A DNA stretch of 38,509 nucleotides from a virus, in IMG/VR virus record IMGVR_UViG_3300032288_000802, positions 1 to 38,509 of that record; one strand, written 5' to 3'. The notes under the pieces are model-generated. The model was given only the letters and a program-made list of their open reading frames with translations, was not told where the DNA came from and ran no database searches. The translations under genes were made by a program, and so were the position numbers. Below are positions 3,355 to 38,467 of this stretch, one piece after another (positions within the stretch are counted from its first letter, which is position 1; each line of letters begins with the position of its first letter).

Positions 3355-3945
3355 ATGAATATAAAGCACGAACAATTTATTGGTATTTACGAAGATGCTT
3401 TTTCAAAAGAGTATTGCGAATCAGTGATTGATTACTTTGAAAAAATGGTTGCGGCTGGGCATACGTTAAATAGGCAACAAGAAATAGAAAATACACTTAA
3501 ATCATTAAAAGACGATTCATTTCATTTTGCTAATAATGATCCTGCTATTAATCTTCGTGCAAATTCGGTATTAATGGGGCAATTTAATGAAATATTTTGG
3601 AGGCAATGTTACCCCCACTACACCAATAAATTTTGGGTTTTAAAAAATTTTGGTCCACATAATTCGTATTATTTTAAGATTCAAAAAACAGAACCCGGAC
3701 AGGGGTATCATGTTTGGCACTGTGAAGCTAGTAATAGAGAAACCTGCAACAGAATACTTGCTTGGACTCTTTACCTAAACGATATAGAAGAAGGCGGAGA
3801 AACTGAATTTATAAATCAACACATGCGAATAAAGCCTAAACAAGGTACGGTTATTATATCCCCTGCTGGACTTACTCATACTCATCGGGGCAACACGCCT
3901 CTTTCTGGCACTAAATATATTGTTACTGGATGGGTTGAATTTTAA
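3355..3945 (+). CDS. 2-oxoglutarate/Fe(II)-dependent oxygenase (prolyl 4-hydroxylase-like)
   Basis: 196 residues. The double-stranded beta-helix core runs from about residue 100 to the end. The iron triad reads H122-x-E124 (WHCE) and a distal His in LTHTHRG (H175, possibly H177). The 2OG carboxylate anchor is probably K187 in GTKYIVTGW. GGETEF and KPKQGTVIISPAG are typical strands of the fold. The family hydroxylates proteins, nucleobases or small molecules; no substrate is evident here. The DNA is AT-rich (18 G+C in 3361-3420, against 26 in 3961-4020), suggesting a transferred accessory gene between lysis and tail genes. Confidence 0.85.
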   Translation: MNIKHEQFIGIYEDAFSKEYCESVIDYFEKMVAAGHTLNRQQEIENTLKSLKDDSFHFANNDPAINLRANSVLMGQFNEIFWRQCYPHYTNKFWVLKNFGPHNSYYFKIQKTEPGQGYHVWHCEASNRETCNRILAWTLYLNDIEEGGETEFINQHMRIKPKQGTVIISPAGLTHTHRGNTPLSGTKYIVTGWVEF

Positions 3946-11377: not shown

Positions 11378-14300
11378 ATGCCATATTTGCGTCTACCTAG
11401 TGGGTCATTCGTAGAAGTTCCGGAAGGAATGTCTCAAAGCGAGGCACTAGCAAAGGCAAGACAACAATTCCCAGACGCATTTGCCCCACCTATCAAACCA
11501 GATACGGGATTTACGGGCGCAGCTAAATCAAGTTTTGAACAACTTAAAGCAGATTTTGAACGTCTCAAAGGCAGAACCGGCATAAAAGATGTAGAAGAAG
11601 CCGAAAAAGAAGCGCAAAAATACGAAAAGAAAAGAGAAAAAGTATTTAAACCAACGGAAGAAAGTTGGGCTGAAGCGCCTTTTGAAAAGCTTAAAGAAAC
11701 TCTTGGTGGCAGTGTGCCTTATGCGGCAGCTCCGCTTGTTATTGGTGGTGCGGCTGCTCTTGGTGGTGCTCCTGTTGCCGTTGGTACGGGATTAGCAGGT
11801 CTTGCATCATTAGGTCAATTTACTGCATCAAACATTAGTCGTCAGGTTGGTACAGGCACACAACTTAAAGACACTGATTTGCTTGCGGCTGGTGCCGCTG
11901 CCGTGCCACAGGCTGCTTTAGATATTATTTCGTTCCGTATGATCCCCGGTATTGGCAGGATCTTTGGTGCGGCAGGCAAAGAGATTACGCCAGAGATGGC
12001 TAAGAAAATTGCCGAACAAAACATACTAAAAACAACAGGCGCATACGCACTACAGAGCGGTAAAACCGCAGGTATTGAAGGCACTACTGAAGCTGCACAA
12101 CAACTTTTGGAGCGTTTGCAAGCAGGTTTGTCTATTACAGATAAAGAAGCAAGAGACGAATATTTTGAAAGTTTTATTGGTGGTGCTGCACTTGGTGGCA
12201 CATTAGCTATACCCGGCACCGCCGTTAGAAGAAGCCAAATTAAATCCGAAGGGCGTCGCCTAGAAGCTGAAAAAGAAGCAAAAGCTAGCGAAGAACTTGC
12301 CGCTACCCGTGCCGCTGAACAGCAAATGGCGGATATTGCCGCTGAACAAAAGCCTCCTGTTATTAGCCCTGAGCAAAAACAAGAAAATATTACGCAGATG
12401 CGCCGTGAGATTTTTGAGCAAGAGCGTGTCCTTAAACAACAGCTTAACGAACTGCGCTCCACGGCAGCTAAAGAAACAGACGTTGATAAACTAGCCGCCC
12501 TTAGCGATCAAGCTAGGACAATACAAAACGCACTAAACGAATTAAACCCAGACAAACTTGGGCAACGCATTACCAAGATAACTGCTGAAACTAAAGCGCT
12601 TAATAAACAGCTTAAAGATGCTGAGAAAAAAGACGACGAAGAGGCAGCAGAACCTATTCGGCAACAGATTGCTACAAACAATCAGACCCTTGATACGTTA
12701 AAGACACGCTTAGAAGCTATTAAAGCTGTGCCTGCTCAAGCGCCTACTGCAAAAGACTTATCTACTGTTCTTGCTCAAATTAACAAAGCCAGAGAAACTG
12801 GCAACCTAGAGGCGCTGGGTAATTTAACTAAAAAGTACAAAGAAATGCAGTCGCAGTACACAGGTATGCAGATGCCCGGAGGTCCAGCAGAGCAAGCTAG
12901 TCTGTTTGAAGAAACCAAAGAAGGTGTGCGCTATCCTGAATATGAGAAACGTATGGCAGAAGAACGCCGTCAGCGTGAAGCCATATCTAAAGACATTGTT
13001 GAGCAAGAGCAGTTAGCAGGGTTAACCGAGGCTGAGATTGCCGCAGGGCAACGTGGTGCAGTAAAGCCTAAGTTTAAAGAGGACATGACGCCAGAAGAAT
13101 ACGAGACATACCTCGTAGATAAGTTGGTGTCTGCATATACAGAGCCTGAGAAAGTAGATCAAAGACTTACGCCAGAACAAAAGGCTACTGAATATAAGCG
13201 GGTTCGGGCGTTAACTGAAGCTAAAAAAGAACTAGATGATGCAGTTGCACGATACGATCGTTATGTAGCTTTTGCAGAAAAGAAAGCTCAAGCTAAAGCT
13301 GAGGGACGTGGCGAAAGACTATATGCTCCCCCAAAAGAAGGTCGTTCTCTTGAAGTTCTTAAAGCAGGTAAAGACTTACAGGATGTTTTAGACGCGGTAT
13401 TTGCTGCACGTAAAAAGTTTGCTGAAGCTATTCCAAAAGGCAAACGTACCCCAACAGAAGCAGTTCGTTCGTCCGATATGATGCGTGATTACATCATGCT
13501 AGACCTTACCGATGTCATTGACAGCATGCGTAAGGGGGAACGATTTGGCGGTACAAACCCCGCTATGGCAACAGGTTCTCAAGAAACCAAAGCTATCAAA
13601 GCTCGCAAACTGCTTGACCGCTACATTGAAGCGACTGTAAATAACATTAACTTTACCCGTCTAGCACAGGCGCAAACGCCGTTAAGCGACGCCGAGCGTG
13701 CTGAAGTTGTAGACCAGATTGAGTCGTTGATGGGTGGCAAAATCCAACGTGCTACAGGAAAACTTGCTGCCCAGATGAAAGCCGGTGAGCCCTCGCCTGA
13801 AACAGCAATGCGTACTGCACTAGAGAAAGCTGGGTTTAAGTTTGCCCCACTCCCGTCAGGTGAAGGCGAGATTAAGACAGGTTTTAGCCGTGAAGAGTTT
13901 AAAGATGTTGGCGACTTTATTAGCAAGTTAAAAGCAGAATACACCGCTAAAGAGCGCAAGTTTGGCAAGCTAACTAGAGAAACAGCCCGTGATTTGTTTG
14001 AAGAAGGGCGTAAAAAAGACACAGGTAAAAAGCGTCCAACCGATGTTGAAGCTGATGACATTACTCGTCTTGCCCGTAAATTAGACCGTGTTTTACAAAG
14101 CGATCTAAGCAAAGAACAACGTGCCGTATTTGAAAAGGCAGAGCGCATGCTTGCGGAAGGCAAGCGCACAATAGACAGAGAAGGTGTTACATCAACCGGT
14201 GTAACTAAAAATATACCCGGACTTGTTAACGCTACAGAAGCACAAGCAGACAGAGTTATTGCCGGTCTTGAACCTGACTTGCGTGATATTAATGACGCCA

Positions 14301-17300
14301 TAACTAATATTGAAGAGGCGCTGACTACTAGGGTTCCGTATACCAAAGAAGGTAAACAGATGCCCGGCGGGCAGATGGAGTTTTTCCCAGATCAAACTGC
14401 CACAATTCGTGCTACTGAGCAAAACTTTAAGCGCATTCAAAATATCAACAAGTTCCGTAGAGAAGGCAAAGATGTATACAGCCCTGTTCTAAGAGCTTTT
14501 GAGAAACAGAAAAACATTGTTACAAACCAGATTCGTGCTATAGAACGTATTGCTGAGGAGAAACGTACCCAAAAGCAGATTAAAGCATTGCGTCTTGCTC
14601 AAGCCCAAGAAAGAAAACTGCTCGATAACATTGAGAAAACTAAGAAGTCAATTGCCGAATCAGAAGCGCAAGCTAAACGTGTAACCGGTCTTGGTTTACC
14701 CGGCAAGAAACAAGAGTTTGAACCTCAAGCCAAAATGCAGGCTGCACTACCCCACAGATACGATGCTGTGCAGTCGCCGTTTAATTTTGCTCGCCAGTTC
14801 TACAAAGAGATGGTTGAGCGTCGTAGCCTTACGATGAACAAGAAACAGCAAGAGGCATACAAAAAAGCTGTTGAAGACTACAAAAAATCTCGTGAGAAGC
14901 TAGATAATGCGTTTAAGCAAAACAGGGTAGACCCACGCATTGCCAAAGTAATGAACTCCATGGTAGAAATGGAGGAAGGCATACCACGCTACCGCAAAGC
15001 AGAAAACCTTATTCTTGGTATTGAAGAAAAACTTCAGGGCGTAATTTTAGGTATAAGACCACCTACCAAGGTAACAGAAATTAAGAAGGCTACAACGCCT
15101 GAAGAAGAGAAAAAAGAAGAAAAGCTTAAGAAAGACCTTGGGCAAGTTGAGCCCAAAGCAACGCCCGATGAAAGGGCGGTTGGTCGCATCTCTGAAATTG
15201 AACTTGCTAAAGTCCGTAAAGAAAAGAACGACCGGTTTAACTATGTTAAAGAACGCTTGGATTCAAAAAGAGCCCCACAAGCAGAGCGTCCAAAACTTGC
15301 TAAAGAATTAGCAGCACTAGAAAAAGAAGTTAAAGCGTTTGACGAGATTCTTAATGCTCGTCGTATTGGTATGGTTGTTGGCAAAGCGCAAGAAGAGCAA
15401 GGCGCAAAACGCTACAAACCAACCAAAACTGAAAAGAAAATGGAGAAAGCCGGTAAGTTTGCTAAAGCCGGGGTGGCTCCTGAATCGTATAGTTTGGTTC
15501 GTAGATCGTTAAAAGAACGTGAAGAAATAGCAGAACGTAGGCTATATAAAAATACTCCCGTGTTTGTTCGTAGCGCTATATCCAAAATTGCGGAACTACA
15601 AGACCGCATGGAAAACGAAAAGCTTTCCGAAGAGCAAAAAACAAATATGGAGCGCACTATTGCGCGGCTAAAGACTGAAATTAGAGAAGCTACGTTTGGG
15701 GAAGTTGAACGGCAGGAAGCTGAAGCGTTTGGCATTGACGTAGAAAAATATCGCCGCTTTATGAATATGCTTGGCGGTTCGTTTAAGCCACGTATTGAAG
15801 CAGTTGCCGGAGAGAAGCGTCTTGATAAAGCCGAAGCTAAGAAAGCCTTGGCAGGCGTGAAGATACCTAAAGGTTTAGATATTCTGTTGTTTGATACCGT
15901 GCCTGAGAAAGTTAAAGAACAGGCAAGAGCCCAAGGCTATACAGAAGCCCAGATTGATGGCATCCGTGGTGGTGTAATGCCAGACGGTAGTGTGTTTGTT
16001 GTTTTCGGCACCCACGCAGATGTTAAAGACTTTCAACGCACACTAGCCCACGAGATTACTGGACACTTGGGCGTTGAGACTTTGCTTGGCGAAGCTGGGA
16101 TGACTGCCTTAGCAAAACGTGTTGCTAAACAAGATGGTGGGGTATTTGCGCTTGCGGATAAATTAGGTGTTAGCGAAGAAGCTACTGCTACCTACGCTGC
16201 CGCTAAGCGTGCAGGGGACACGGACGAGCAAGCCGCTAATAAAGCATTGCGTGAAGTTATTGCCCACGTTGAAGAGGCACGACCAGACAAGAACTTCTTG
16301 GCAAAAGCAAATGAGTTTATTAAGGCTTTAGTTGGCGCAGTTCGTGCTGCACTGCGGAAGATGGGTGTTGATCTTGATGTATCTACAAGTGATGTATACA
16401 AGATTTTACGAGATGCACGAAACAACTTTAATGAGTTTGCTCCCGGTGTTTATACAAAGAGCAACGGAGAAATCCAGTTTAGCGTTGGTGTTGCCGAGTA
16501 TGGTGCGGCAGGAGAAGGCTTTAAGCAAGCCGCTGAAAAGATACTTGTACAAAACAAGTCGTTAAGAGATAGAACCCTAGGCAATAATTTAGGTTTGCGC
16601 ATTAAGCAATTGTTTGTTAGCCGTAGTGCCGGACTAGAACAGGTATACGCTAATAAAGCCGCCGAAAAGTCTTCTAGCGCCCTACAGACTAAGTACTACA
16701 TTAATATGCACGACCAGCGTTACGCTTGGACTAATGCTGCTATGTCAAACGGCGTGCCTAAACTACGTCAGGAAAAAGGCGGTACCAAGTATGTTATTGA
16801 GTCCGTTAAAGGTGCTAATCTAAAACAGCTTGCTGAAATATTAAGTAGTGCTAAGTGGGGTAATGCTGAGGGCGTGCGTAACTCATACAGCGTTTATCGT
16901 ATTGCTAAGCGTGCCAAACGTGTTGGCTTAGACAAGTTGAACTTCAAAGATACCAAGGATGTTGAAAAGGCTATCAAAGCGCTTGAAGTTTCTATGAAAG
17001 CCAACCCAACGTTAATGGACACCTTTAAGAAGGCAGACGAGGTATACGACCAGTACAACAAAGACTTAATGGACTTCTTGGTACAGACAGGGCGCATATC
17101 TGAATCGCTTGCTAAAGAACTTACTAAGTACAACGACTACATTCCGTTCTATCGTAAAGATGCAAATGGCGACGTAGTGCTTGATGTTGGTGGCGCCCCA
17201 CGTGTACGGGTTGGTAACTTAAAAGACCAGCCATACCTGCATGAGTTGGCAGGAGACGATGAGCGTATTGTTGATATTTATACCGGTGCTTTGCAAAACA

Positions 17301-19144
17301 CCAGCCTGTTGATTGATATGGCGTTGGGCAACCTAGCCACACGTAACACAGCGTTTAGCTTAAATGAACTTGGCTTAGTTAAGCCACGTATGAAAAACGA
17401 CAAGCCTGTACCGGGCACGTATATTCGCAAAGGTACAGGTCCAGCTAGCGATAAAGTTATTCGTTTCTACGTTAAGCCGGTTGATGAGAACGACGATGGC
17501 AGACGCTATGTTGAGATTGACACCGATACTGTAGGCGTACCTGCTGAGTTTGTAGTCCAAGGATTAGCGGGGGTAAACACAAGCGTGCCGGGGGCAGTCA
17601 ATATTATGGGTATACCAGCCAGACTCTTGCGCACTTGGGTAACTAGAAGCCCTGTGTATGCCGCCCGTCAGGTTATTCGTGATCCGTTTATTGCGGTTAT
17701 GGCAAGCGGTGTTGATACTGCGCCTGTGCTTTCTTCTTTGAGAGAGATTGCCAAAACACTACCAAAAGCAATACGTGGTGAGACCATAGATAGCGAGATA
17801 ACACGCTTTGGTCTAATAAGCAGCAACGTATTTACCGGAACTGTTGAAGACCAACAAAAGATGATGCTTCAGCTAGCAGGTAAGTCAGGGCTAAAAGGGC
17901 AGATCAATAATTGGTTTGCTAAAGCAGACATCATGGCAATGCAGGGTGATGCTGCAACGCGTCAAGTATCGTTTAATAACTACCGCAGACAGGGCTTGTC
18001 TGAGATGGAAGCAATCTTGGCTACGCATGAGTTAATGCCATTTAGCCAACGTGGTACGTCTGCTAGTTTGTTCTTGCTATCTACCATGGTGCCATTCCTT
18101 AATGCACAGATCCAAGGCTTTAATGTTCTATACAAAGCATTTAGAGGCACAGGCACTTTCCAAGACAAACTACGTATTAAACAAAAACTGTGGCAGCGTG
18201 GAGCTATGATGTTTGGCGCCACAATGCTGTATGCCCTAATAATGAGTGAAGACGAGGCGTACCTAAATGCTAACGATGACGAAAGATACAATAACTGGTT
18301 TGTATATGTACCGGGAGTTGATGAACCAGTACGCATTCCTATTCCATTTGAGTTGGGTATCATATTTAAGGCTTTACCAGAGGCTATTGTCAATGTAATG
18401 CAAGGTGATAGAACGGCGGGCGAAGCAGCTACCGCTCTCTTAAAGATGGTAAAGAACGCAGTTCCGCTAGGACCAAGCGCTTTGCCACAAGCCATTAAAG
18501 CCCCAATTGAAGTTCTTTCAGACTATTCGTTCTATACAGGACGCAGTATCGTAGGAGAGCGCTTAAAAGATGTAGACCCATCCGAGCGCTTTAATCAAAA
18601 TACAACCGAGATTGCTAAGCTGATCGGCAAAGGCACGGGCAAAATACCTATCCTTGGCGAATACTTATCACCTGTGCAGATTGAATATTTAGTTCGTGGA
18701 TATACCGGCGGCTTGCCATTAGCGCTTGCTTCGTTGACCAACCCTGTGTTTGGTGGTGGCGGTACCGGTGGAGAGAAACCCGAAATGCGGGCTAGTGATT
18801 TGCCTGTCTTTGGTGCTGTGTTCCAGCCTAAAGATGCGGGTGGTTTGATTAACAGGGCTTACAAAGATGTAGAAAGCGTTGAGCGGGCTAAGAAGACCTA
18901 CAACAAGCTTGAGGAAGAAGGGCGTGAAAAAGATGCAGAAGCCTACTCTGACCAGTTTGCAGACTTGTTAAGCCTTGCACCTCTAGCCGGTCAGTTCCGT
19001 CAACGTATGGGCGAGTTGGCTAAGGAAGAGCGTGAAGTTAAGGCAGATCCAAATATGGCAGGCGCAGAGAAACGCAGGCTATTAGATGAAATACGCCAAG
19101 AAAGAATTGAGTTGGCTAAAGATTTGATTAGCGAACGCGAGTAA
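11378..19144 (+). CDS. Giant polyvalent virion protein with HExxGH metallopeptidase motif and C-terminal LPD38
   Basis: 2588 residues, the largest gene and last of the + strand block. The N-terminus (MPYLRLPSGSFVEVPEGMSQSEALAKARQQFP, about 1-32) is a common adaptor motif. Hydrophobic Gly/Ala segments at about 110-150 and 263-280 could insert in a membrane. Long charged coiled coils fill about 290-1500. AHEITGHLG places H1558-E1559 and H1563 in an HExxGH zincin motif, and EVIAHVEE further on may supply the third ligand. From about 2090 to 2450 the protein matches large polyvalent-protein-associated domain 38 (PVYAARQVIRDPF, MPFSQRGTS, VPFLNAQIQGFN). The family is thought to be packaged and ejected into the host with the DNA, where several domains act on cell targets. 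Ejection and proteolysis are inference. Confidence 0.75.
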   Translation: MPYLRLPSGSFVEVPEGMSQSEALAKARQQFPDAFAPPIKPDTGFTGAAKSSFEQLKADFERLKGRTGIKDVEEAEKEAQKYEKKREKVFKPTEESWAEAPFEKLKETLGGSVPYAAAPLVIGGAAALGGAPVAVGTGLAGLASLGQFTASNISRQVGTGTQLKDTDLLAAGAAAVPQAALDIISFRMIPGIGRIFGAAGKEITPEMAKKIAEQNILKTTGAYALQSGKTAGIEGTTEAAQQLLERLQAGLSITDKEARDEYFESFIGGAALGGTLAIPGTAVRRSQIKSEGRRLEAEKEAKASEELAATRAAEQQMADIAAEQKPPVISPEQKQENITQMRREIFEQERVLKQQLNELRSTAAKETDVDKLAALSDQARTIQNALNELNPDKLGQRITKITAETKALNKQLKDAEKKDDEEAAEPIRQQIATNNQTLDTLKTRLEAIKAVPAQAPTAKDLSTVLAQINKARETGNLEALGNLTKKYKEMQSQYTGMQMPGGPAEQASLFEETKEGVRYPEYEKRMAEERRQREAISKDIVEQEQLAGLTEAEIAAGQRGAVKPKFKEDMTPEEYETYLVDKLVSAYTEPEKVDQRLTPEQKATEYKRVRALTEAKKELDDAVARYDRYVAFAEKKAQAKAEGRGERLYAPPKEGRSLEVLKAGKDLQDVLDAVFAARKKFAEAIPKGKRTPTEAVRSSDMMRDYIMLDLTDVIDSMRKGERFGGTNPAMATGSQETKAIKARKLLDRYIEATVNNINFTRLAQAQTPLSDAERAEVVDQIESLMGGKIQRATGKLAAQMKAGEPSPETAMRTALEKAGFKFAPLPSGEGEIKTGFSREEFKDVGDFISKLKAEYTAKERKFGKLTRETARDLFEEGRKKDTGKKRPTDVEADDITRLARKLDRVLQSDLSKEQRAVFEKAERMLAEGKRTIDREGVTSTGVTKNIPGLVNATEAQADRVIAGLEPDLRDINDAITNIEEALTTRVPYTKEGKQMPGGQMEFFPDQTATIRATEQNFKRIQNINKFRREGKDVYSPVLRAFEKQKNIVTNQIRAIERIAEEKRTQKQIKALRLAQAQERKLLDNIEKTKKSIAESEAQAKRVTGLGLPGKKQEFEPQAKMQAALPHRYDAVQSPFNFARQFYKEMVERRSLTMNKKQQEAYKKAVEDYKKSREKLDNAFKQNRVDPRIAKVMNSMVEMEEGIPRYRKAENLILGIEEKLQGVILGIRPPTKVTEIKKATTPEEEKKEEKLKKDLGQVEPKATPDERAVGRISEIELAKVRKEKNDRFNYVKERLDSKRAPQAERPKLAKELAALEKEVKAFDEILNARRIGMVVGKAQEEQGAKRYKPTKTEKKMEKAGKFAKAGVAPESYSLVRRSLKEREEIAERRLYKNTPVFVRSAISKIAELQDRMENEKLSEEQKTNMERTIARLKTEIREATFGEVERQEAEAFGIDVEKYRRFMNMLGGSFKPRIEAVAGEKRLDKAEAKKALAGVKIPKGLDILLFDTVPEKVKEQARAQGYTEAQIDGIRGGVMPDGSVFVVFGTHADVKDFQRTLAHEITGHLGVETLLGEAGMTALAKRVAKQDGGVFALADKLGVSEEATATYAAAKRAGDTDEQAANKALREVIAHVEEARPDKNFLAKANEFIKALVGAVRAALRKMGVDLDVSTSDVYKILRDARNNFNEFAPGVYTKSNGEIQFSVGVAEYGAAGEGFKQAAEKILVQNKSLRDRTLGNNLGLRIKQLFVSRSAGLEQVYANKAAEKSSSALQTKYYINMHDQRYAWTNAAMSNGVPKLRQEKGGTKYVIESVKGANLKQLAEILSSAKWGNAEGVRNSYSVYRIAKRAKRVGLDKLNFKDTKDVEKAIKALEVSMKANPTLMDTFKKADEVYDQYNKDLMDFLVQTGRISESLAKELTKYNDYIPFYRKDANGDVVLDVGGAPRVRVGNLKDQPYLHELAGDDERIVDIYTGALQNTSLLIDMALGNLATRNTAFSLNELGLVKPRMKNDKPVPGTYIRKGTGPASDKVIRFYVKPVDENDDGRRYVEIDTDTVGVPAEFVVQGLAGVNTSVPGAVNIMGIPARLLRTWVTRSPVYAARQVIRDPFIAVMASGVDTAPVLSSLREIAKTLPKAIRGETIDSEITRFGLISSNVFTGTVEDQQKMMLQLAGKSGLKGQINNWFAKADIMAMQGDAATRQVSFNNYRRQGLSEMEAILATHELMPFSQRGTSASLFLLSTMVPFLNAQIQGFNVLYKAFRGTGTFQDKLRIKQKLWQRGAMMFGATMLYALIMSEDEAYLNANDDERYNNWFVYVPGVDEPVRIPIPFELGIIFKALPEAIVNVMQGDRTAGEAATALLKMVKNAVPLGPSALPQAIKAPIEVLSDYSFYTGRSIVGERLKDVDPSERFNQNTTEIAKLIGKGTGKIPILGEYLSPVQIEYLVRGYTGGLPLALASLTNPVFGGGGTGGEKPEMRASDLPVFGAVFQPKDAGGLINRAYKDVESVERAKKTYNKLEEEGREKDAEAYSDQFADLLSLAPLAGQFRQRMGELAKEEREVKADPNMAGAEKRRLLDEIRQERIELAKDLISERE

Positions 19145-32552: not shown

Positions 32553-32776
32553 TGCAATGTCCTGTTCTTTAAGTCGTCCATATGGCTACCGCATACTTCA
32601 CTCGCCGCTTCTAGTAAAAGCGCAGGCACGTCTTCTTCGGTTATGTTTAGCCCATACACTCTTACTGTATTTTCTTTCTCGTTCACAACTACAACTACTG
32701 CTGAGTGGTGCGCTTTCTCTACTGTGCATAGATTCAAAGCATCTTGCACCATTTGATACGCCTGTTCCTTACTCAT
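32549..32776 (-). CDS. Unknown 75-residue protein
   Basis: Not recognised. A short helix (EQAYQMVQDALNLC) is followed by two beta strands (HSAVVVVVNEKENTVRVYGL) and an acidic helix (EEDVPALLLEAASEV). It is soluble, with no metal site. ATGA overlaps join it to the VRR-NUC gene before and the membrane protein after. Confidence 0.55.
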   Translation of the reverse strand: MSKEQAYQMVQDALNLCTVEKAHHSAVVVVVNEKENTVRVYGLNITEEDVPALLLEAASEVCGSHMDDLKNRTLQ

Positions 32777-33060
32777 GATATATCCCTCAATAAAATTGTT
32801 ACATCAGATATGTTGTCTTCGTTGACAACAAGTACCTGCCCATTGGCTTCTTTTATTTTGTTCATCTCTGCTTCTTGTAGTGCAGTAGGTTTGTTAGTAC
32901 CTGCCTTACACTCAATAGCAAAGAACACACCCCGATAGCAACCAACAATATCAGGAACCCCACTACGCCCATAGCCACCAGTAGCAGGGAAAAAATAATA
33001 AGCGCCACCTTTCTTAAGTACATCAACTACTTTCTTCTTTACTTTGGCTTCGGGGGTCAT
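32773..33060 (-). CDS. VRR-NUC domain nuclease
   Basis: 95 residues, a stand-alone VRR-NUC domain of the PD-(D/E)XK superfamily. Catalytic residues: GVPDIVG (D37), AIECK (E50, K52) and PTALQ (Q62). YYFFPATGGYGRSG precedes them, as usual. Phage stand-alone VRR-NUC proteins act on branched or flapped DNA, similar to Holliday-junction resolvases. It would process replication or recombination intermediates before packaging. It overlaps the preceding gene by 38 nt. Confidence 0.9.
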   Translation of the reverse strand: MTPEAKVKKKVVDVLKKGGAYYFFPATGGYGRSGVPDIVGCYRGVFFAIECKAGTNKPTALQEAEMNKIKEANGQVLVVNEDNISDVTILLRDIS

Positions 33061-33241
33061 AGCGTTTCCTCACTTCCTCAAGACGTTGTAGACAAATGAC
33101 GATTAAGTTCAGTTGGTTCTGTAATATCTCTTGCTCGTTGTACTGATACGCCTTGAGCGCCACGATTACCTCAGCTTCAAGATTACATAACGCAGCGTTC
33201 TCTCGCATCATTGCGAGTATCTCAACCTCTGACATGGGCAT
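33023..33241 (-). CDS. Unknown 72-residue helical protein
   Basis: ATG at 33241 lies 7 bases after AGGAG, inside the end of the winged-helix gene (20-nt overlap), and the 3' end overlaps the VRR-NUC gene by 38 nt. The protein looks all-helical (VEILAMMRENAALCNLEAEV, then NQLNLIVICLQRLEEVRKRY). The long overlap makes it less certain than its neighbours. Without it, however, 33061-33221 would be empty in a very compact region. Confidence 0.5.
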   Translation of the reverse strand: MPMSEVEILAMMRENAALCNLEAEVIVALKAYQYNEQEILQNQLNLIVICLQRLEEVRKRYDPRSQSKEESS

Positions 33242-33518
33242 GCTTTAACTCCTCTAAAAAAACCATTCCCTTACCTGTTGGTGCAAACTCACGCAGTCTG
33301 CTATCGTCTGATTTAACTGTATGCACAAACTTCTTGCGTTGTAACTCCTTAAGATATTTGTGCGCAGTCGATGGCGACATGGCGTTTTGTTTCTCTGCTA
33401 GTAAAAGAATACGTGATGTGCTTATTGGTTCTAACGAACTAACCATACCCAAGATGTACTCCTCTTGCATGGTAAGGTGATGCTTGTCACGAATTGATTG
33501 TGTCTTAAATGTGTTCAC
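33222..33518 (-). CDS. Winged helix-turn-helix protein (MarR-like)
   Basis: 98 residues, GTG start at 33518 after GGGGGAG. EEYILGMVSSLEPISTSRI, SPSTAHKYLKELQRKKFVHT (48-67) and the wing SDDSRLREFAPTGKGM match MarR-type winged helices. The HTH reads MSPSTAHKYLKEL. It could control early phage or host genes. It is located directly after the DUF3150-like gene and begins the chain of small coupled genes. There is no ligand domain. Confidence 0.7.
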   Translation of the reverse strand: MNTFKTQSIRDKHHLTMQEEYILGMVSSLEPISTSRILLLAEKQNAMSPSTAHKYLKELQRKKFVHTVKSDDSRLREFAPTGKGMVFLEELKHAHVRG

Positions 33519-33528
33519 TTACTCCCCC

Positions 33529-34401
33529 TTAAAAATCGAACTTACTGAGAATACCATCTACTTCTTTCTTGATGTCCTGACGTGTTGGCATATCCTTGCG
33601 CAAATCCTTGACGTCAACCCCATTGATTACTTTCTTCAACGTCTTGCGTGCGTCTTCGATCTGTGGGTCGTTGATTATATTCAATGACGTAGCCAAGTCG
33701 CACAGTTCATGCGCAGTTTCTAGCAACGAGTCGTGGAACTTGCGTGGCTTGACCTCACCTGCAATCACGTCAACCTCTAGCCTGTCTGACATACGCTTGA
33801 GATGTTCTACAAGTCGTTGCTTAAAGCCGTTAATCGCTGACTCAATACGCTCGTCTGCCAACTTCGACAGTTTGTTCTTGAGTTCTACTTGTGCGTCATT
33901 GCCAACGTCTACCCTGAAGTCACCCGATGCAGGCACAGGCATGTAGTTGGTATTGAACTTAAAGCGATGCTCAATATCGTTTGATGCGGGGTAGTCGTGT
34001 CGGTTGAACATATCACCCAATGCCATAGCTTGCGCAGTAATCAACGAGGGGTAGACAGTAACGAACTCTTTGACCAGTCCATAGAACTTATCCTCGTACT
34101 CTTGCATCTTGGCATTGAACTCCATGAACTTAACGCTTGGCAACAGGCGTATACCCGAATCACTCCATGGCAACGTGTTGTCGTAGACATAGCTACGTGT
34201 TTCTGTGACGTGCTGGTTGATCACTTCCAACTCGCTACGCCCTGCGAACAGGTGCTTGTTTACCCTCGCCGCGCCCTTATCTTGCGCCTTCTTGTTGCTG
34301 ACTAACTCCTCGGTCGTTGATTTGTCCAACTTCCTAGCAGTCCATTGTGAAACAGATAACTCTATTAGTAATGCGCATGTGTCGATGTTATATCGTGTCA
34401 T
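33529..34401 (-). CDS. DUF3150-like protein, partner of AAA+/VWA module
   Basis: 290 residues. Start region LIELSVSQWTARKLDKST, then GIRLLPSVKFMEFNAKM and long helices (VELKNKLSKLADERIESAIN, VEHLKRMSDRLEVDV) match my recollection of DUF3150, which is found in phages next to MoxR-like ATPases and VWA proteins. The fold is helical with no catalytic motif. It is the last larger gene of the module. The leader CAAACGAGGAAATCATG is shared with other module genes. It may be a substrate adaptor for the ATPase; this is inference. Confidence 0.6.
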   Translation of the reverse strand: MTRYNIDTCALLIELSVSQWTARKLDKSTTEELVSNKKAQDKGAARVNKHLFAGRSELEVINQHVTETRSYVYDNTLPWSDSGIRLLPSVKFMEFNAKMQEYEDKFYGLVKEFVTVYPSLITAQAMALGDMFNRHDYPASNDIEHRFKFNTNYMPVPASGDFRVDVGNDAQVELKNKLSKLADERIESAINGFKQRLVEHLKRMSDRLEVDVIAGEVKPRKFHDSLLETAHELCDLATSLNIINDPQIEDARKTLKKVINGVDVKDLRKDMPTRQDIKKEVDGILSKFDF

Positions 34402-34574
34402 GATTTCCTCGTTTGTTCGTTTATAAAAGCTTTCAAAACGTTACGTATTTCTGTGTCGTGGGTAAGAATAAGAAACAACGCCGTACGCACTCGTTCATGA
34501 AATACATCGTCAGGCTTAAACAACTCCATGTCTAGCATGGCGTCTTTAAGTTCTTTGGCTTCTTTCTCGTCCAT
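34398..34574 (-). CDS. 58-residue acidic helical protein in the AAA/VWA module
   Basis: ATG at 34574 shares its A with the preceding TAA (TAATG); TGA at 34398 overlaps the DUF3150-like start (ATGA). The protein is helical (DEKEAKELKDAMLDMELFKP, HERVRTALFLILTHDTEIRN). The precise junctions on both sides support a real gene. No family recognised. It may be a small partner of the DUF3150-like protein. Confidence 0.7.
   Translation of the reverse strand: MDEKEAKELKDAMLDMELFKPDDVFHERVRTALFLILTHDTEIRNVLKAFINEQTRKS
34409..34422 (-). promoter_or_regulatory. Double AAACGA leader before the DUF3150-like gene
   Basis: On the - strand two AAACGA copies (34417-34422 and 34409-34414) come before GGAAATCATG. 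The second gives CAAACGAGGAAATCATG, nearly identical to the leader of the 137-residue gene. Confidence 0.4.
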
Positions 34575-34987
34575 TATTTAATTCCTAACTGCGAAAACAA
34601 ATCGTCAAGATCATCTAGCTTCTCTGTGCGAGTCAATAGTACTGACTTCTTATCGCTTGATGTCCCGATCTTATGGCACCCGTTACCCCATGCTTTAGTA
34701 GCCATAGATGATGCCGAGCCGTACACCGAATCCAAATCATATTGCCCGATTGGAATGGTTACAGTTTGATTCACCGCACACGCATCAATGTATGGTCTGA
34801 TGTGTGTAGAAAGCGATCCATATGGATACTTCGGTGATGCTTTCTTCTGCTTGGATACTGCTTTCACGTCGCCATGCACAACACCCTCGGCGTCCTTGAT
34901 TGCATACTGCGCACCAATAGCGTTGAGTAATTTGATTGCGTTGGATAATGCTTTAGCGTGTAATACTGAAGTTCTTAATTGAGCCAT
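34574..34987 (-). CDS. Unknown 137-residue protein in the AAA/VWA module
   Basis: Not recognised. The N-terminal helix (TSVLHAKALSNAIKLLNAIG) is followed by a small mixed domain (YAIKDAEGVVHGDVKAV) and TVTIPIGQYDLDSVYGSASS. The acidic tail LDDLDDLFSQLGIK is typical of a short peptide that docks on a partner protein. It is conserved in position between the VWA protein and the DUF3150-like protein, so it is likely a component of the same complex. Confidence 0.6.
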   Translation of the reverse strand: MAQLRTSVLHAKALSNAIKLLNAIGAQYAIKDAEGVVHGDVKAVSKQKKASPKYPYGSLSTHIRPYIDACAVNQTVTIPIGQYDLDSVYGSASSMATKAWGNGCHKIGTSSDKKSVLLTRTEKLDDLDDLFSQLGIK

Positions 34988-34994
34988 GATGTCC

Positions 34995-35000
34995 TCGTTT
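34995..35000 (-). promoter_or_regulatory. AAACGA leader motif before the 137-residue gene
   Basis: The start reads TAAACGAGGACATCATG on the - strand; the motif covers the end of the VWA gene's stop codon. Confidence 0.4.
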
Positions 35001-36216
35001 AGTTAGAATAAATACGTACTGCCTTACCCTGCGGTGGTGTGAAGCTGTCGTTGTCAACAACACCCCATATTGCAGGTACATCTACTACTGCGTTACTGCC
35101 ATCAAGGTAGCCATCGGTAAGCCAAATGACACCCTTGGGTTGGTACTTCTTGTCACGAATGTATTGCACAACGCATTCGGGTGTTGTGCCACCGCCCCCC
35201 TGTGGAGAGAGTTGATGACCGATCCTCTCGTACTCGTGTGGCTTGAAGACTTGCTCACCGCATACGGCTGAGTCCCACCAAATGATGCGCACAGAGTCAG
35301 GCTTGACGTTCTCAGCAATACGTGCGATCTCACCGAATACAGTAGGGTAGATACCATTCATAGAACCTGATGTGTCACAGGCAACAATCAACTCGCCTGT
35401 TGCTTCGGAGAAGTGAGAGGGCATGACAACACCGAGAGGTAGCAAGCGCTTGTTGGGTGGTGCAAAGCGAGAATACTCATCACCCTCACACAGCGCAGTA
35501 ACCCACTCAGTCAGATACTCACGCCAATTAGTGTCACGCTTCTGTGTTGCACGATCGAGTGGGCTACCGAGTGATTGCTTGCCTGCCAACTTGTTGGCAA
35601 GGATCTTGCCCTGACGTACTGCATCGTCAATCTGTCGCCCTGTAACCTTGGCTTCTTCCTCAGTCAACGTACCCATGACATGCTCGTCAAAGGGTGTGTC
35701 ACCACCATCGCCGTCACCCTCAACAGGATCACCATTACCACCACCGCCGCCAACCTTCTTGGCTTTCTTGAGTAAGTCTTGCAACACCTCAACGAATGAC
35801 CAACCCTTGTACTGCTTGTCACAGAGCGGTGCAACAACTGCGCATGGCTCGATGAATGAGTAAGTCGGATCCATCTCCTCAAGCATGTTGTTAACGACAT
35901 GATCCATAGCCATGTTGGATAGGCGAGGATACTTAGTTACCAACGGCTTGTAGAGCGTGCAATGTTGCAAGGCTTTGTGACCCTGCTCGTGTAGGCATAG
36001 ATAGCGTAGTTGCTTGCGATTCTGTGCCATCAAGAACGCTGTGCCATACCATACGTCACGACCATTGGTGCCGGCGGTGGGTATGTCGTCGTTGATCTTG
36101 ACATCGCCAACGTAGGTGACACCTGATAGCGATGCGAAGTCTTTGTGATTGCTGATGTCCACGTGAACCGCAACGATGCGATCGTGTGGGTTTAGTTTTT
36201 CCCATGTCTTAGACAT
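34999..36216 (-). CDS. VWA protein with N-terminal zincin-like domain (DUF2201 type)
   Basis: 405 residues from ATG 36216, placed 6 bases after AAAGGA; an open frame to 36267 would overlap the ATPase gene. N-terminal domain: LCLHEQGHKALQH has zinc-binding HEQGH (76-80), and MAMDHVVNN (D105) is the usual following motif. A Gly/Asp-rich linker (about 155-175) leads to a VWA domain with MIDAS VACDTSGSM (D281, S283, S285), GGGTTPE (T345) and WLTDG (D368). This pairing is the DUF2201_N/DUF2201 family. VWA proteins of this kind work with MoxR-type ATPases, whose gene lies just upstream. Confidence 0.88.
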   Translation of the reverse strand: MSKTWEKLNPHDRIVAVHVDISNHKDFASLSGVTYVGDVKINDDIPTAGTNGRDVWYGTAFLMAQNRKQLRYLCLHEQGHKALQHCTLYKPLVTKYPRLSNMAMDHVVNNMLEEMDPTYSFIEPCAVVAPLCDKQYKGWSFVEVLQDLLKKAKKVGGGGGNGDPVEGDGDGGDTPFDEHVMGTLTEEEAKVTGRQIDDAVRQGKILANKLAGKQSLGSPLDRATQKRDTNWREYLTEWVTALCEGDEYSRFAPPNKRLLPLGVVMPSHFSEATGELIVACDTSGSMNGIYPTVFGEIARIAENVKPDSVRIIWWDSAVCGEQVFKPHEYERIGHQLSPQGGGGTTPECVVQYIRDKKYQPKGVIWLTDGYLDGSNAVVDVPAIWGVVDNDSFTPPQGKAVRIYSN

Positions 36217-36227
36217 ATGTTTTCCTT

Positions 36228-36233
36228 TCGTTT
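36228..36233 (-). promoter_or_regulatory. AAACGA leader motif before the VWA-zincin gene
   Basis: The start reads CAAACGAAAGGAAAACATATG split at the motif: CAAACGA, then AAGGAAAACATATG. It decides the VWA start at 36216. Confidence 0.4.
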
Positions 36234-36235
36234 GA

Positions 36236-37351
36236 TTACTTGGTTGAGAAGTAAATCTTGTTGTCATTCATCAACTGTTGGAACGGCTTAACAGTAACGA
36301 ACAACGATGCACGCACAGAGTTGGCAATGTTGTTAGCAAACATAGACTGCAACTCACGACGATTGCGCATGACATACTCGGTGCATGCTTCTGCTTCATC
36401 ACGACTGTTGGTCTGTGTAACGCACTTGAGTACAGTAATGATCTGCGCCACAGGATTGGTTGGGATAGGGCAAGTGCTTGGCGACTGAACTATCTTGGAG
36501 AACGCAGGCGTTTCGTCACCGAACCGAATGTACGCACCCATGATCTCCGCACCTGCACGACCAATCGTACCTGTGAGTAATGCCTGCAACGTATCGGCAT
36601 CAAAGTTCTCACGCTCAGCCACAATGTCTGACGCTGAGTGCAATGAGCGTGGTGTGATGTATGCCTGTTGAGATAAGCGTGGGTTGAAGATCAGATCGTT
36701 GTGCTTATCCTGTGGTGTACCCGCATACTTGCCACCCTCCTCGTAGTCGAGGAACGAGTCGAACCAATTCGTGTTCTGCTCAGTACATGCAAGCACGATA
36801 GGATCAATGTTGTTGTCGATACCCCATGTGTACCACTCAGGTTGCGTAGGCTTGCGCATGTAGGCAAACACCAAGCGATTGCGTAGGTGAGCCTGTATGT
36901 TGTCGCCCAAGCCCTCGGTGCTAAGGTTAGTAGCACAGAACACCACGCTACCCTCAGCCATCTCGTAGTTGCCAACACGTCGCTCGTAGACGATCGGTGC
37001 TAGCACGTCCTTGATGTACTGCTTAGCCTTGGCAATCTCGTCAAGGAATACAAGCGATGGCTTAGCGCCATTGATACCACGTTGATTAGCCTTGCTCACA
37101 CCGAACCGCTCGTTGGGTAACTCACGAGATACCCCTGTGTCACGATCGATGTCAGGCATCCACACCGAACCATCTGACATCTGCGTGCAGTCAAGACCGA
37201 CCGCAACGTGATTGGCAAAGTGTGGGTCTTTGCGCAAGGTATGAAACACCGCTGACTTACCGACACCATTCTCACCCTGTATGATGATGGTGCGCTTGTG
37301 ACCAACGTGCTTGATTGCGTTAACTACTTGTTTTGCATTTAGTAATAGCAT
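36236..37351 (-). CDS. MoxR-type AAA+ ATPase
   Basis: 371 residues. Walker A GENGVGKS (26-33, K32), Walker B LVFLDEI (D104, E105), sensor 1 CATN (N142) and arginine-finger region HLRNRL (R157, R159). This matches MoxR/CobS-type AAA+ ATPases, which pair with VWA proteins to remodel or load metal into partner proteins. The next gene encodes a VWA-zincin protein. The leader (CCAAACGAAGGAC) shares the module motif, and two direct repeats lie upstream. No DNA-binding domain is seen. Confidence 0.88.
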   Translation of the reverse strand: MLLLNAKQVVNAIKHVGHKRTIIIQGENGVGKSAVFHTLRKDPHFANHVAVGLDCTQMSDGSVWMPDIDRDTGVSRELPNERFGVSKANQRGINGAKPSLVFLDEIAKAKQYIKDVLAPIVYERRVGNYEMAEGSVVFCATNLSTEGLGDNIQAHLRNRLVFAYMRKPTQPEWYTWGIDNNIDPIVLACTEQNTNWFDSFLDYEEGGKYAGTPQDKHNDLIFNPRLSQQAYITPRSLHSASDIVAERENFDADTLQALLTGTIGRAGAEIMGAYIRFGDETPAFSKIVQSPSTCPIPTNPVAQIITVLKCVTQTNSRDEAEACTEYVMRNRRELQSMFANNIANSVRASLFVTVKPFQQLMNDNKIYFSTK

Positions 37352-37471: not shown

Positions 37472-38467
37472 TTAAAAGTGAAATCTATTTGGCAACGTGT
37501 TGCTAAACTGTGGTAGTGCCACCTTCTGTGACCCTTTGCCTAGATTGGCATACTTCATAAGGCGTGCGATCAGGCTCTTCTTATGGTCATCTGGCGTGAT
37601 GGCGTTGATGATGTCGTTGATCTTCTCCTCTGCATCTGCCTTCTCGTCAGGGTGCTTAGTGCCGTAGTACCCTTGGGCTTTCCAAAACAAACTACCGCTG
37701 TTGTAAGCCCCGTCGTTGTATACCCGCTTGCTTGCCAACATGTTGAACGCATCTTGCGATACCTCATCAAACAACTGAGCAAAGCGTGGGGTGTTAAGCG
37801 CTTCAGGTACTTGGCTTATGTCCCCTGTGAACGCACCGAACAAGCTGTTTATCTCTAGCCGTACTGAACTGTTCAACTTCTCTTCACCGAACGGACTGCC
37901 TTGATCTGCGTCGACCTTTGCATTAGCCTTGAGTGTAGGTAGCTTGAACATCTGAAGCGTGATGTATGCTTCGAGTTGTGCCTTGAGGGCTTTGCGCTTA
38001 GCCTTGTCCTCATCTGTACTAGCAAAACGATATACGTCAGAGTGCCATGACTCCTCCACAACAAGTTGGTCAGAACTATTAAAGCAAAGCACAGCCGAGA
38101 AGTCTTGCTCTTGATCCTTGTAGTGTGGGTTAAGCGGTACTTTGACTACCTCGCCTGTCGTCGTGGTGAGTGGCATGCACGAGTAGATCCTTGTGAACTG
38201 ATACATAAGATGTATGTCGTAGGTTGCGTACAGCCCACGTATTGCCACCTCGGATATGCCTTGCTCGTTGGGTGGGTAGTAGCGTGCTACCTCAGTCCTG
38301 TTGATCTTGACCACGTAACTGTTTGCGTCTTTCTGCAACATGAGCCATGACTCAGGCACCCTGCGTAACGGGCGTTGATTCTCGGCATACTTCTTACTGC
38401 GTGGTGGCTTGCGTGTGTTGTTGTACAGATTGTCAAAGTGTTGATACGTTGGGATTATATGGGTCAT
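37472..38467 (-). CDS. Conserved phage protein of unknown function, 331 residues
   Basis: Start ATG at 38467 after GGAGGACTAGC, a strong ribosome site. The protein has an N-terminal basic region (RKPPRSKKYAENQRPLRR), a beta-rich middle (WLMLQKDANSYVVKIN, FSAVLCFNSSDQLVVEESWH), and helical parts (KRKALKAQLEAYITLQMFK). The end VALPQFSNTLPNRFHF is Phe/Pro-rich. I do not recognise a domain. It is directly upstream of the AAA/VWA module but separated by the direct repeats and a short hairpin, so it is probably the end of an earlier transcript. Confidence 0.6.
   Translation of the reverse strand: MTHIIPTYQHFDNLYNNTRKPPRSKKYAENQRPLRRVPESWLMLQKDANSYVVKINRTEVARYYPPNEQGISEVAIRGLYATYDIHLMYQFTRIYSCMPLTTTTGEVVKVPLNPHYKDQEQDFSAVLCFNSSDQLVVEESWHSDVYRFASTDEDKAKRKALKAQLEAYITLQMFKLPTLKANAKVDADQGSPFGEEKLNSSVRLEINSLFGAFTGDISQVPEALNTPRFAQLFDEVSQDAFNMLASKRVYNDGAYNSGSLFWKAQGYYGTKHPDEKADAEEKINDIINAITPDDHKKSLIARLMKYANLGKGSQKVALPQFSNTLPNRFHF

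What the first reader, a model, noticed from the sequence alone, without database searches (positions are those of the whole stretch)
33529..37351. Phage-encoded AAA+ / zincin-VWA / DUF3150 module with two unknown small partners
A MoxR-type ATPase, a VWA protein with an HEQGH zincin domain, a 137-residue protein with an acidic tail, a 58-residue protein and a DUF3150-like protein sit together without a gap. MoxR-VWA pairs are known to remodel or mature partner proteins (as CobS/CobT and CoxD/CoxE-like systems do), and related pairs occur in bacterial conflict loci. Its use in a phage is not explained. I infer a multi-protein machine made early in infection to disarm or remodel a host complex.
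Basis: partly seen in the sequence, partly recalled or inferred. Interest (0 to 1): 0.78.

Follow-up and report, generated by a model that had tools for sequence, protein, structure and literature searches.

The report
Phage ATPase, protease-like, DUF3150 gene module
This phage carries a three-gene protein machine (a ring ATPase, a protease-like clamp protein and a helper of unknown function) that also recurs in other phages and in over a thousand bacterial plasmids, usually beside DNA-handling genes, yet nobody knows what it does.

Summary
The fixed core is three genes: a MoxR-like AAA+ ATPase, a DUF2201 zincin-VWA protein and a DUF3150 protein. In the window's own phage group a 331-residue gene (37472-38467) always lies upstream. 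The 137-residue gene is optional, and the 58-residue gene is a private insertion absent from every relative found. The same trio occurs on Burkholderiales plasmids and, in a divergent form, on pCAR1 and IncC plasmids (DUF3150 in 1,118 plasmid records, 969 typed conjugative). There it lies beside or is interleaved with recombination genes. Zinc-site (HExxH) and metal-binding (MIDAS) residues are conserved, so both sites are probably functional. The ATPase/zincin-VWA pair is already described in phages (N4 gp24/gp25; jumbo phages). I found no paper naming DUF3150 or the trio. Best reading: an ATP-driven remodelling and cleaving machine working with DNA replication or recombination. 'Disarms a host complex' has no direct support.

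The parts
36236..37351 (-). MoxR/midasin-like AAA+ ATPase (core subunit 1; homologue of N4 gp24)
   Evidence: Walker A GENGVGKS, Walker B LVFLDE; PHROG 1297 1e-39; profile best PDB match midasin 2.4e-29; present in 41 of 44 viral DUF3150 loci, the other 3 being cut off by the contig end
34999..36216 (-). DUF2201 zincin-VWA protein (core subunit 2; homologue of N4 gp25)
   Evidence: Pfam DUF2201_N 1.6e-8 and DUF2201 9.4e-11; HExxHxxxxH, AxDxxxN and MIDAS DxSGS...T...D invariant in 13 diverse homologues
33529..34401 (-). DUF3150 protein (core subunit 3)
   Evidence: Pfam 26.0 bits vs cut-off 24.9; predicted fold matches viral DUF3150 proteins at TM 0.8
34574..34987 (-). optional 137-aa protein with winged-helix-like topology and conserved acidic C-terminal helix
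   Evidence: present in 19 of 23 relatives in the window's group, missing in L054, L055, L056, L060; model pLDDT 79.7; no confident fold match
34398..34574 (-). 58-aa open frame, private insertion, not part of the conserved module
   Evidence: absent from all relatives; clean ~150-bp insertion in the alignment; no relative in IMG/VR
37472..38467 (-). 331-aa protein of unknown family, always directly upstream of the ATPase in this phage group; not in the finding
   Evidence: present in all 19 group loci whose contig reaches that far; no Pfam, PHROG, PADLOC or NCBIfam match
33222..33518 (-). 98-aa winged-helix-like protein following DUF3150; part of the same gene run, probably not a subunit
   Evidence: weak sub-cut-off winged-helix matches; follows DUF3150 directly or after a few hundred bases in most relatives

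Best explanation
The core is one three-subunit machine. The MoxR-like ATPase forms a ring. The VWA domain docks on the ring and grips a target through its metal site. ATP hydrolysis pulls or twists the target, and the zincin domain on the same protein cleaves or holds it. DUF3150, a mostly helical protein, is the dedicated third subunit, most likely an adaptor that sets target choice. The machine is made with the replication and recombination genes of phages and conjugative plasmids, and its target is most likely a protein complex on DNA, of the element or of the host. Shown: three families fixed together across phages and plasmids, intact ATPase, zinc and metal-site residues, and DNA-metabolism neighbours. 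Inferred: that they form one complex, that the zincin cuts protein, the role of DUF3150, and the target.
For: Every testable viral DUF3150 locus (41 for the ATPase, 42 for the VWA) has both partners, in two gene orders. The trio recurs in MinM2, Burkholderiales and Rhodovastum plasmids, a Bryobacterales MAG and, in a diverged form, pCAR1, IncC, pM2-1 and pMAQU02 plasmids. Profile comparison links all three subunits between the two forms: ATPase 96%, DUF3150 90%, zincin region 80% probability. HExxH is in 45 of 46 VWA proteins, the exception being a decayed remnant. Closest solved ATPase by profile is midasin, whose partner is also a VWA/MIDAS domain (partner from general knowledge and PMC9976466). 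NorQ-NorD shows the docking, MIDAS target binding and pulling mode (PMC9976466, PMC13036017). Neighbours: ssb-bet-exo lie between ATPase and DUF3150 in IncC plasmids; RecT and lambda-type exonuclease lie beside it on pMAQU02; polymerase, helicase and nucleases follow it in the window.
Against: No contact between subunits was predicted or measured. DUF3150's predicted fold matches no solved structure, so its adaptor role is a guess. N4-like phages keep the ATPase/VWA pair without a DUF3150 detected in the one locus searched by profile or annotated in N4, and one Manganitrophus plasmid has DUF3150 beside a different ATPase with no VWA. Many phage early genes sit near replication genes, so neighbourhood alone is weak evidence for a DNA target.
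Confidence: 0.5

Rival explanations
1. A virion-assembly chaperone with a maturation protease: ATPase plus zincin-VWA folds and trims structural proteins, as proposed for jumbo phages and by analogy with the archaeal virus ATV.
For: Iyer et al. propose exactly this for the same pair in group 2.2 jumbo phages (PMC7824862); an AAA/VWA pair is reported in ATV and haloviruses (PMC7911831).
Against: The trio is on conjugative plasmids that make no virions. In the window it lies on the opposite strand from the structural genes, in the replication run.
Confidence: 0.15
2. A counter-defence or host-takeover machine: the ATPase extracts, and the zincin cleaves, a host complex such as an immune or DNA-degrading complex.
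For: Shared by phages and conjugative plasmids, both of which enter hosts as foreign DNA; related MoxR-vWA-peptidase systems occur in conflict loci (PMC7159879, PMC12839542). IncC plasmids and SXT/R391 elements are reported to repair CRISPR-made breaks (Roy et al. 2020; title seen in a reference list only).
Against: No defence or counter-defence family matched specifically; a paper on anti-defence genes of plasmid leading regions does not mention these families. The trio's wide host range does not point to any one defence.
Confidence: 0.2
3. A metal-insertion chaperone or chelatase of the CobS/CobT or NorQ/NorD type, with DUF3150 in the place of the client-binding subunit.
For: Same ATPase/VWA architecture; the pCAR1 ATPase has a CbbQ/NorQ C-terminal domain and its VWA is labelled NorD.
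Against: No CobN-type or metalloenzyme client gene was seen travelling with it. An active-looking zincin site is not needed for chelation; DUF3150 shows no similarity to a chelatase.
Confidence: 0.1
4. Three proteins inherited together by chance linkage on mobile elements rather than one machine.
For: Phage gene order is often conserved among close relatives, so many loci are not independent.
Against: The trio persists between lineages at 25-35% identity, in two gene orders, in phages and plasmids, while neighbours and small genes between them change.
Confidence: 0.05

Closest known systems
N4 gp24/gp25 pair of Schitoviridae
   Same: Same ATPase and zincin-VWA families; adjacent in N4, 1.245.O and RHEph16; core N4-like proteins of unknown role; the N4 VWA has both DUF2201 domains
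   Different: No DUF3150 detected in the N4-like locus tested; the window is not an N4-type genome by its other genes
MoxR / metallopeptidase-vWA pair of group 2.2 jumbo phages (Iyer et al. 2021, PMC7824862)
   Same: Same architecture: MoxR ATPase plus vWA with an N-terminal metallopeptidase domain
   Different: No DUF3150 partner mentioned; virion-assembly role proposed there
pCAR1 ORF101-103 and its relatives on R478, Rts1, SXT, R391 (PMC2642839)
   Same: ATPase - DUF3150 - VWA with an N-terminal HExxH; all three subunits linked to the phage ones by profile comparison
   Different: ATPase of CbbQ/NorQ type, VWA of 604 aa with a different (PF00092) VWA family; proposed there to act in conjugation; I did not examine R478, Rts1, SXT or R391 myself
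NorQ/NorD
   Same: MoxR ring plus VWA partner with an N-terminal domain; mechanism model
   Different: Dedicated to nitric oxide reductase; no DUF3150
VMAP and iSTAND MoxR-vWA ternary conflict systems
   Same: MoxR plus vWA-peptidase plus a third protein
   Different: Third protein is VMAP or an inactive STAND NTPase, not DUF3150; found as host defence

Membership tests
MoxR-clade AAA+ ATPase | Intact Walker A and B | tested here: met
   GENGVGKS and LVFLDE in the window; G, GK and D columns invariant
MoxR-clade AAA+ ATPase | Best match within the dynein-related/MoxR group | tested here: inconclusive
   AAA_5 17.9 bits, below its 22-bit cut-off; profile best PDB match is midasin, CbbQ also matches
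DUF2201 zincin-VWA | Both Pfam domains above cut-off | tested here: met
   34.9 vs 23.2 and 42.3 vs 26.4 bits
DUF2201 zincin-VWA | Zinc motif and MIDAS residues conserved | tested here: met
   H76 E77 H80 H85 D105 N109, D281 S283 S285 T344 D368 invariant in 13 sequences
DUF2201 zincin-VWA | Peptidase activity | not testable with these tools
   needs an assay
DUF3150 | Pfam score above cut-off | tested here: met
   26.0 vs 24.9 bits, narrowly
DUF3150 | Same fold as other members | tested here: met
   TM about 0.8 to viral DUF3150 protein A0A6J7WV52
Schitoviridae (N4-like phage) | Giant virion RNA polymerase | tested here: inconclusive
   the 2588-aa protein matches only LPD38 and two PHROGs of unknown function; contig incomplete
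CobNST cobaltochelatase | CobN large subunit encoded | tested here: not met
   no CobN-like match among the window proteins searched; only this incomplete contig was tested
VMAP-type MoxR-vWA conflict system | VMAP or STAND third component | tested here: not met
   third component is DUF3150; no specific PADLOC match

The most novel reading that the evidence does not exclude
ATPase, zincin-VWA and DUF3150 are one ATP-driven protease-remodeller, shared by phages and conjugative plasmids, that strips or cleaves a protein complex on DNA so that the element can replicate or recombine on entering a cell. DUF3150 would be a new class of adaptor for MoxR machines.
Probability: 0.3. Interest if true: 0.75.

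Novelty: new variant of a known kind. Interest (0 to 1): 0.5.

Why it matters
The ATPase/VWA pair is core to N4-like phages, and DUF3150 relatives lie on more than a thousand plasmid records, many of them IncC-type conjugative plasmids, yet the function is unknown. Recognising one trio across phages and plasmids gives a single testable hypothesis, and safe models (N4 in E. coli K-12, pCAR1 in P. putida KT2440) to test it.

Tried and rejected
Five-gene machine: rejected because the 58-aa gene is private and the 137-aa gene optional. 137-aa protein as a known DNA-binding fold: the topology looks winged-helix-like but no PDB match reached E 0.001. DUF3150 function from structure: no PDB match. 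Mycobacterium phage Dylan gp94 as a distant DUF3150 (weak fold match E 3.6e-3): rejected; profiles did not match it, and its neighbouring ATPase and locus do not match ours. L062 apparent DUF3150-VWA fusion: a decayed remnant, since the ATPase also lacks Walker A. Promoter and terminator scans: no more sites than in shuffles. DUF3150 and SXT/R391 literature: no paper names DUF3150; the Roy et al. 2020 paper on IncC break repair is not held.

Full report
What is there. Pfam confirms the two-domain DUF2201 protein (zincin-like N-terminal part plus VWA-like C-terminal part) and, narrowly, DUF3150. PHROGs place the ATPase and the VWA in two phage families, 1297 and 1314; 1314 is named 'HNH endonuclease', which is wrong for these proteins. 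The window is a 38.5-kb virus record, probably a fragment. Structural genes run on the plus strand; primase, helicase, polymerase and nucleases on the minus strand follow the module. Its polymerase is nearest, at 30-32%, to 61-64-kb Rhizobium and Pseudomonas KPP25-like phages.

What is conserved. IMG/VR relatives show the order 331-aa gene, ATPase, VWA, optional 137-aa gene, DUF3150. The 58-aa gene is absent from all of them; an alignment with three close relatives shows a clean ~150-bp insertion in the window between the 137-aa stop and the DUF3150 start, and a scan of IMG/VR found no relative. The 137-aa gene is missing in four of 23 group loci, and HNH-type genes have entered the same slot in L050 and L054. 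The 331-aa gene is present in all 19 group loci that reach that far, but has no known family.

Co-occurrence. Using DUF3150 proteins from MinM2, from L060 and from a Bryobacterales MAG as queries gave further viral contigs. In total 44 viral loci with DUF3150 were scored. 41 have the ATPase and 42 the VWA; the missing cases (L020, L073, L080; L063, L074) are contigs that end within about 720 bp upstream or 160 bp downstream. Two orders occur: ATPase-VWA-DUF3150 in the window's group, ATPase-DUF3150-VWA elsewhere. DUF3150 identity between the groups is about 25-34%. Loci within a group are not independent, so the count is not a probability; the independent facts are the separate lineages and the two orders.

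Plasmids. Plasmids of Robbsia and Rhodovastum carry ATPase-DUF3150-VWA contiguously, and Simplicispira carries DUF3150-VWA with an ATPase 3.6 kb upstream; the Robbsia copy lies a few kb from a PRTRC cassette. pCAR1, whose ORF101 (MoxR) and ORF103 (VWA) are reported to be conserved in R478, Rts1, SXT and R391 (PMC2642839), has DUF3150 between them (Pfam 8e-92). tblastn with the pCAR1 DUF3150 matches 1,118 plasmid records, 969 typed conjugative. In two IncC plasmids ssb/bet/exo genes lie between the ATPase and DUF3150 (only bet and exo are annotated in the second); pMAQU02 has RecT and a lambda-type exonuclease just upstream. All five plasmid VWA proteins examined have HExxH near the N-terminus, followed by a conserved N-x-x-E-D motif. 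Profile-profile comparison links ATPase (96%), DUF3150 (90%) and the zincin region (80%) between plasmids and phages. hmmsearch with the phage profiles is weak for some of these pairs, so the link rests mainly on profiles and synteny.

Chemistry. Across 13 VWA proteins from the window's group, an N4-like phage, Thermus phage phiFa, phage G, an rV5-like phage, MinM2 and plasmids, HExxHxxxxH, AxDxxxN and the MIDAS residues are invariant. In the larger set HExxH is in 45 of 46, the exception being a decayed remnant. The MIDAS pattern search missed sequences with DCSGS or DASGS, which keep the metal-binding residues in those aligned. This argues that both sites are used. The ATPase profile is closest among solved structures to midasin.

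Structures. DUF3150: pLDDT 82.7, pTM 0.71, mostly long helices; no PDB match, clear matches to viral DUF3150 proteins. 137-aa protein: helix, winged-helix-like core, C-terminal acidic helix; no confident match. Its invariant Asp residues could be a ligand for the MIDAS site, since VWA-MIDAS proteins use an acidic residue of the target (PMC9976466); that is inference only.

How it probably works. In NorQ-NorD the VWA protein docks on the ring through a finger, the MIDAS site binds the target, and ATP hydrolysis pulls or twists it (PMC13036017; PMC9976466). I take the phage trio to work in that way, with a zincin that can cut or hold the target and DUF3150 as adaptor. The repeated neighbourhood of recombination and replication genes points to a target on DNA. 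The virion-assembly role proposed for jumbo phages (PMC7824862) does not fit the plasmid occurrence. Host disarming remains possible but unsupported.

Novelty. The pair is known in phages. DUF3150 as the fixed third member across phages and plasmids is, as far as the searchable literature goes, not described; absence from an open-access library is not proof. I rate it a new variant of a known kind.

Noticed in passing
NC_008720.1 (L085:2165-3307) and many RefSeq phage records: N4 gp25 and relatives are labelled 'HNH endonuclease' in RefSeq and PHROG 1314, but carry DUF2201 zincin-VWA domains (3e-87 and 1e-46). A propagated misannotation.
   Followed up: yes
L062:6625-8963 (Pseudomonadales MAG): Decayed copy of the trio: ATPase without Walker A, and the N-terminal part of DUF3150 joined to the C-terminal part of the VWA.
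   Followed up: partly
L069:10365-10817: HslV-like peptidase (PHROG 1040, 7e-26) about 2.5 kb downstream of an ATPase-DUF3150-VWA trio.
   Followed up: no
L032:5866-9139 (Manganitrophus plasmid): DUF3150 beside a different ATPase, DUF1257 and DUF2997, with no VWA.
   Followed up: no
   Followed up: no
window 11378-19144: 2588-aa protein with an LPD38 domain (3e-34), which Pfam describes as a large polyvalent protein associated domain.
   Followed up: no
window 3355-3945: 2OG-Fe(II) oxygenase-like protein (PHROG 61, 8e-50) next to the endolysin gene.
   Followed up: no
window 32773-33060: 95-aa Holliday-junction-resolvase-like nuclease (Pfam Hjc 1e-5; PHROG 93 endonuclease 3e-18) close downstream of the module.
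   Followed up: no
L002 and its two relatives: Synechococcus phage MinM2 and Planktothrix phages Pag-Yong1 and Pra-JY27 all have records of 65,014 bases although filed under different hosts.
   Followed up: no
window 37472-38467: Conserved 331-aa orphan family directly upstream of the ATPase; best candidate for a fourth, group-specific partner.
   Followed up: partly
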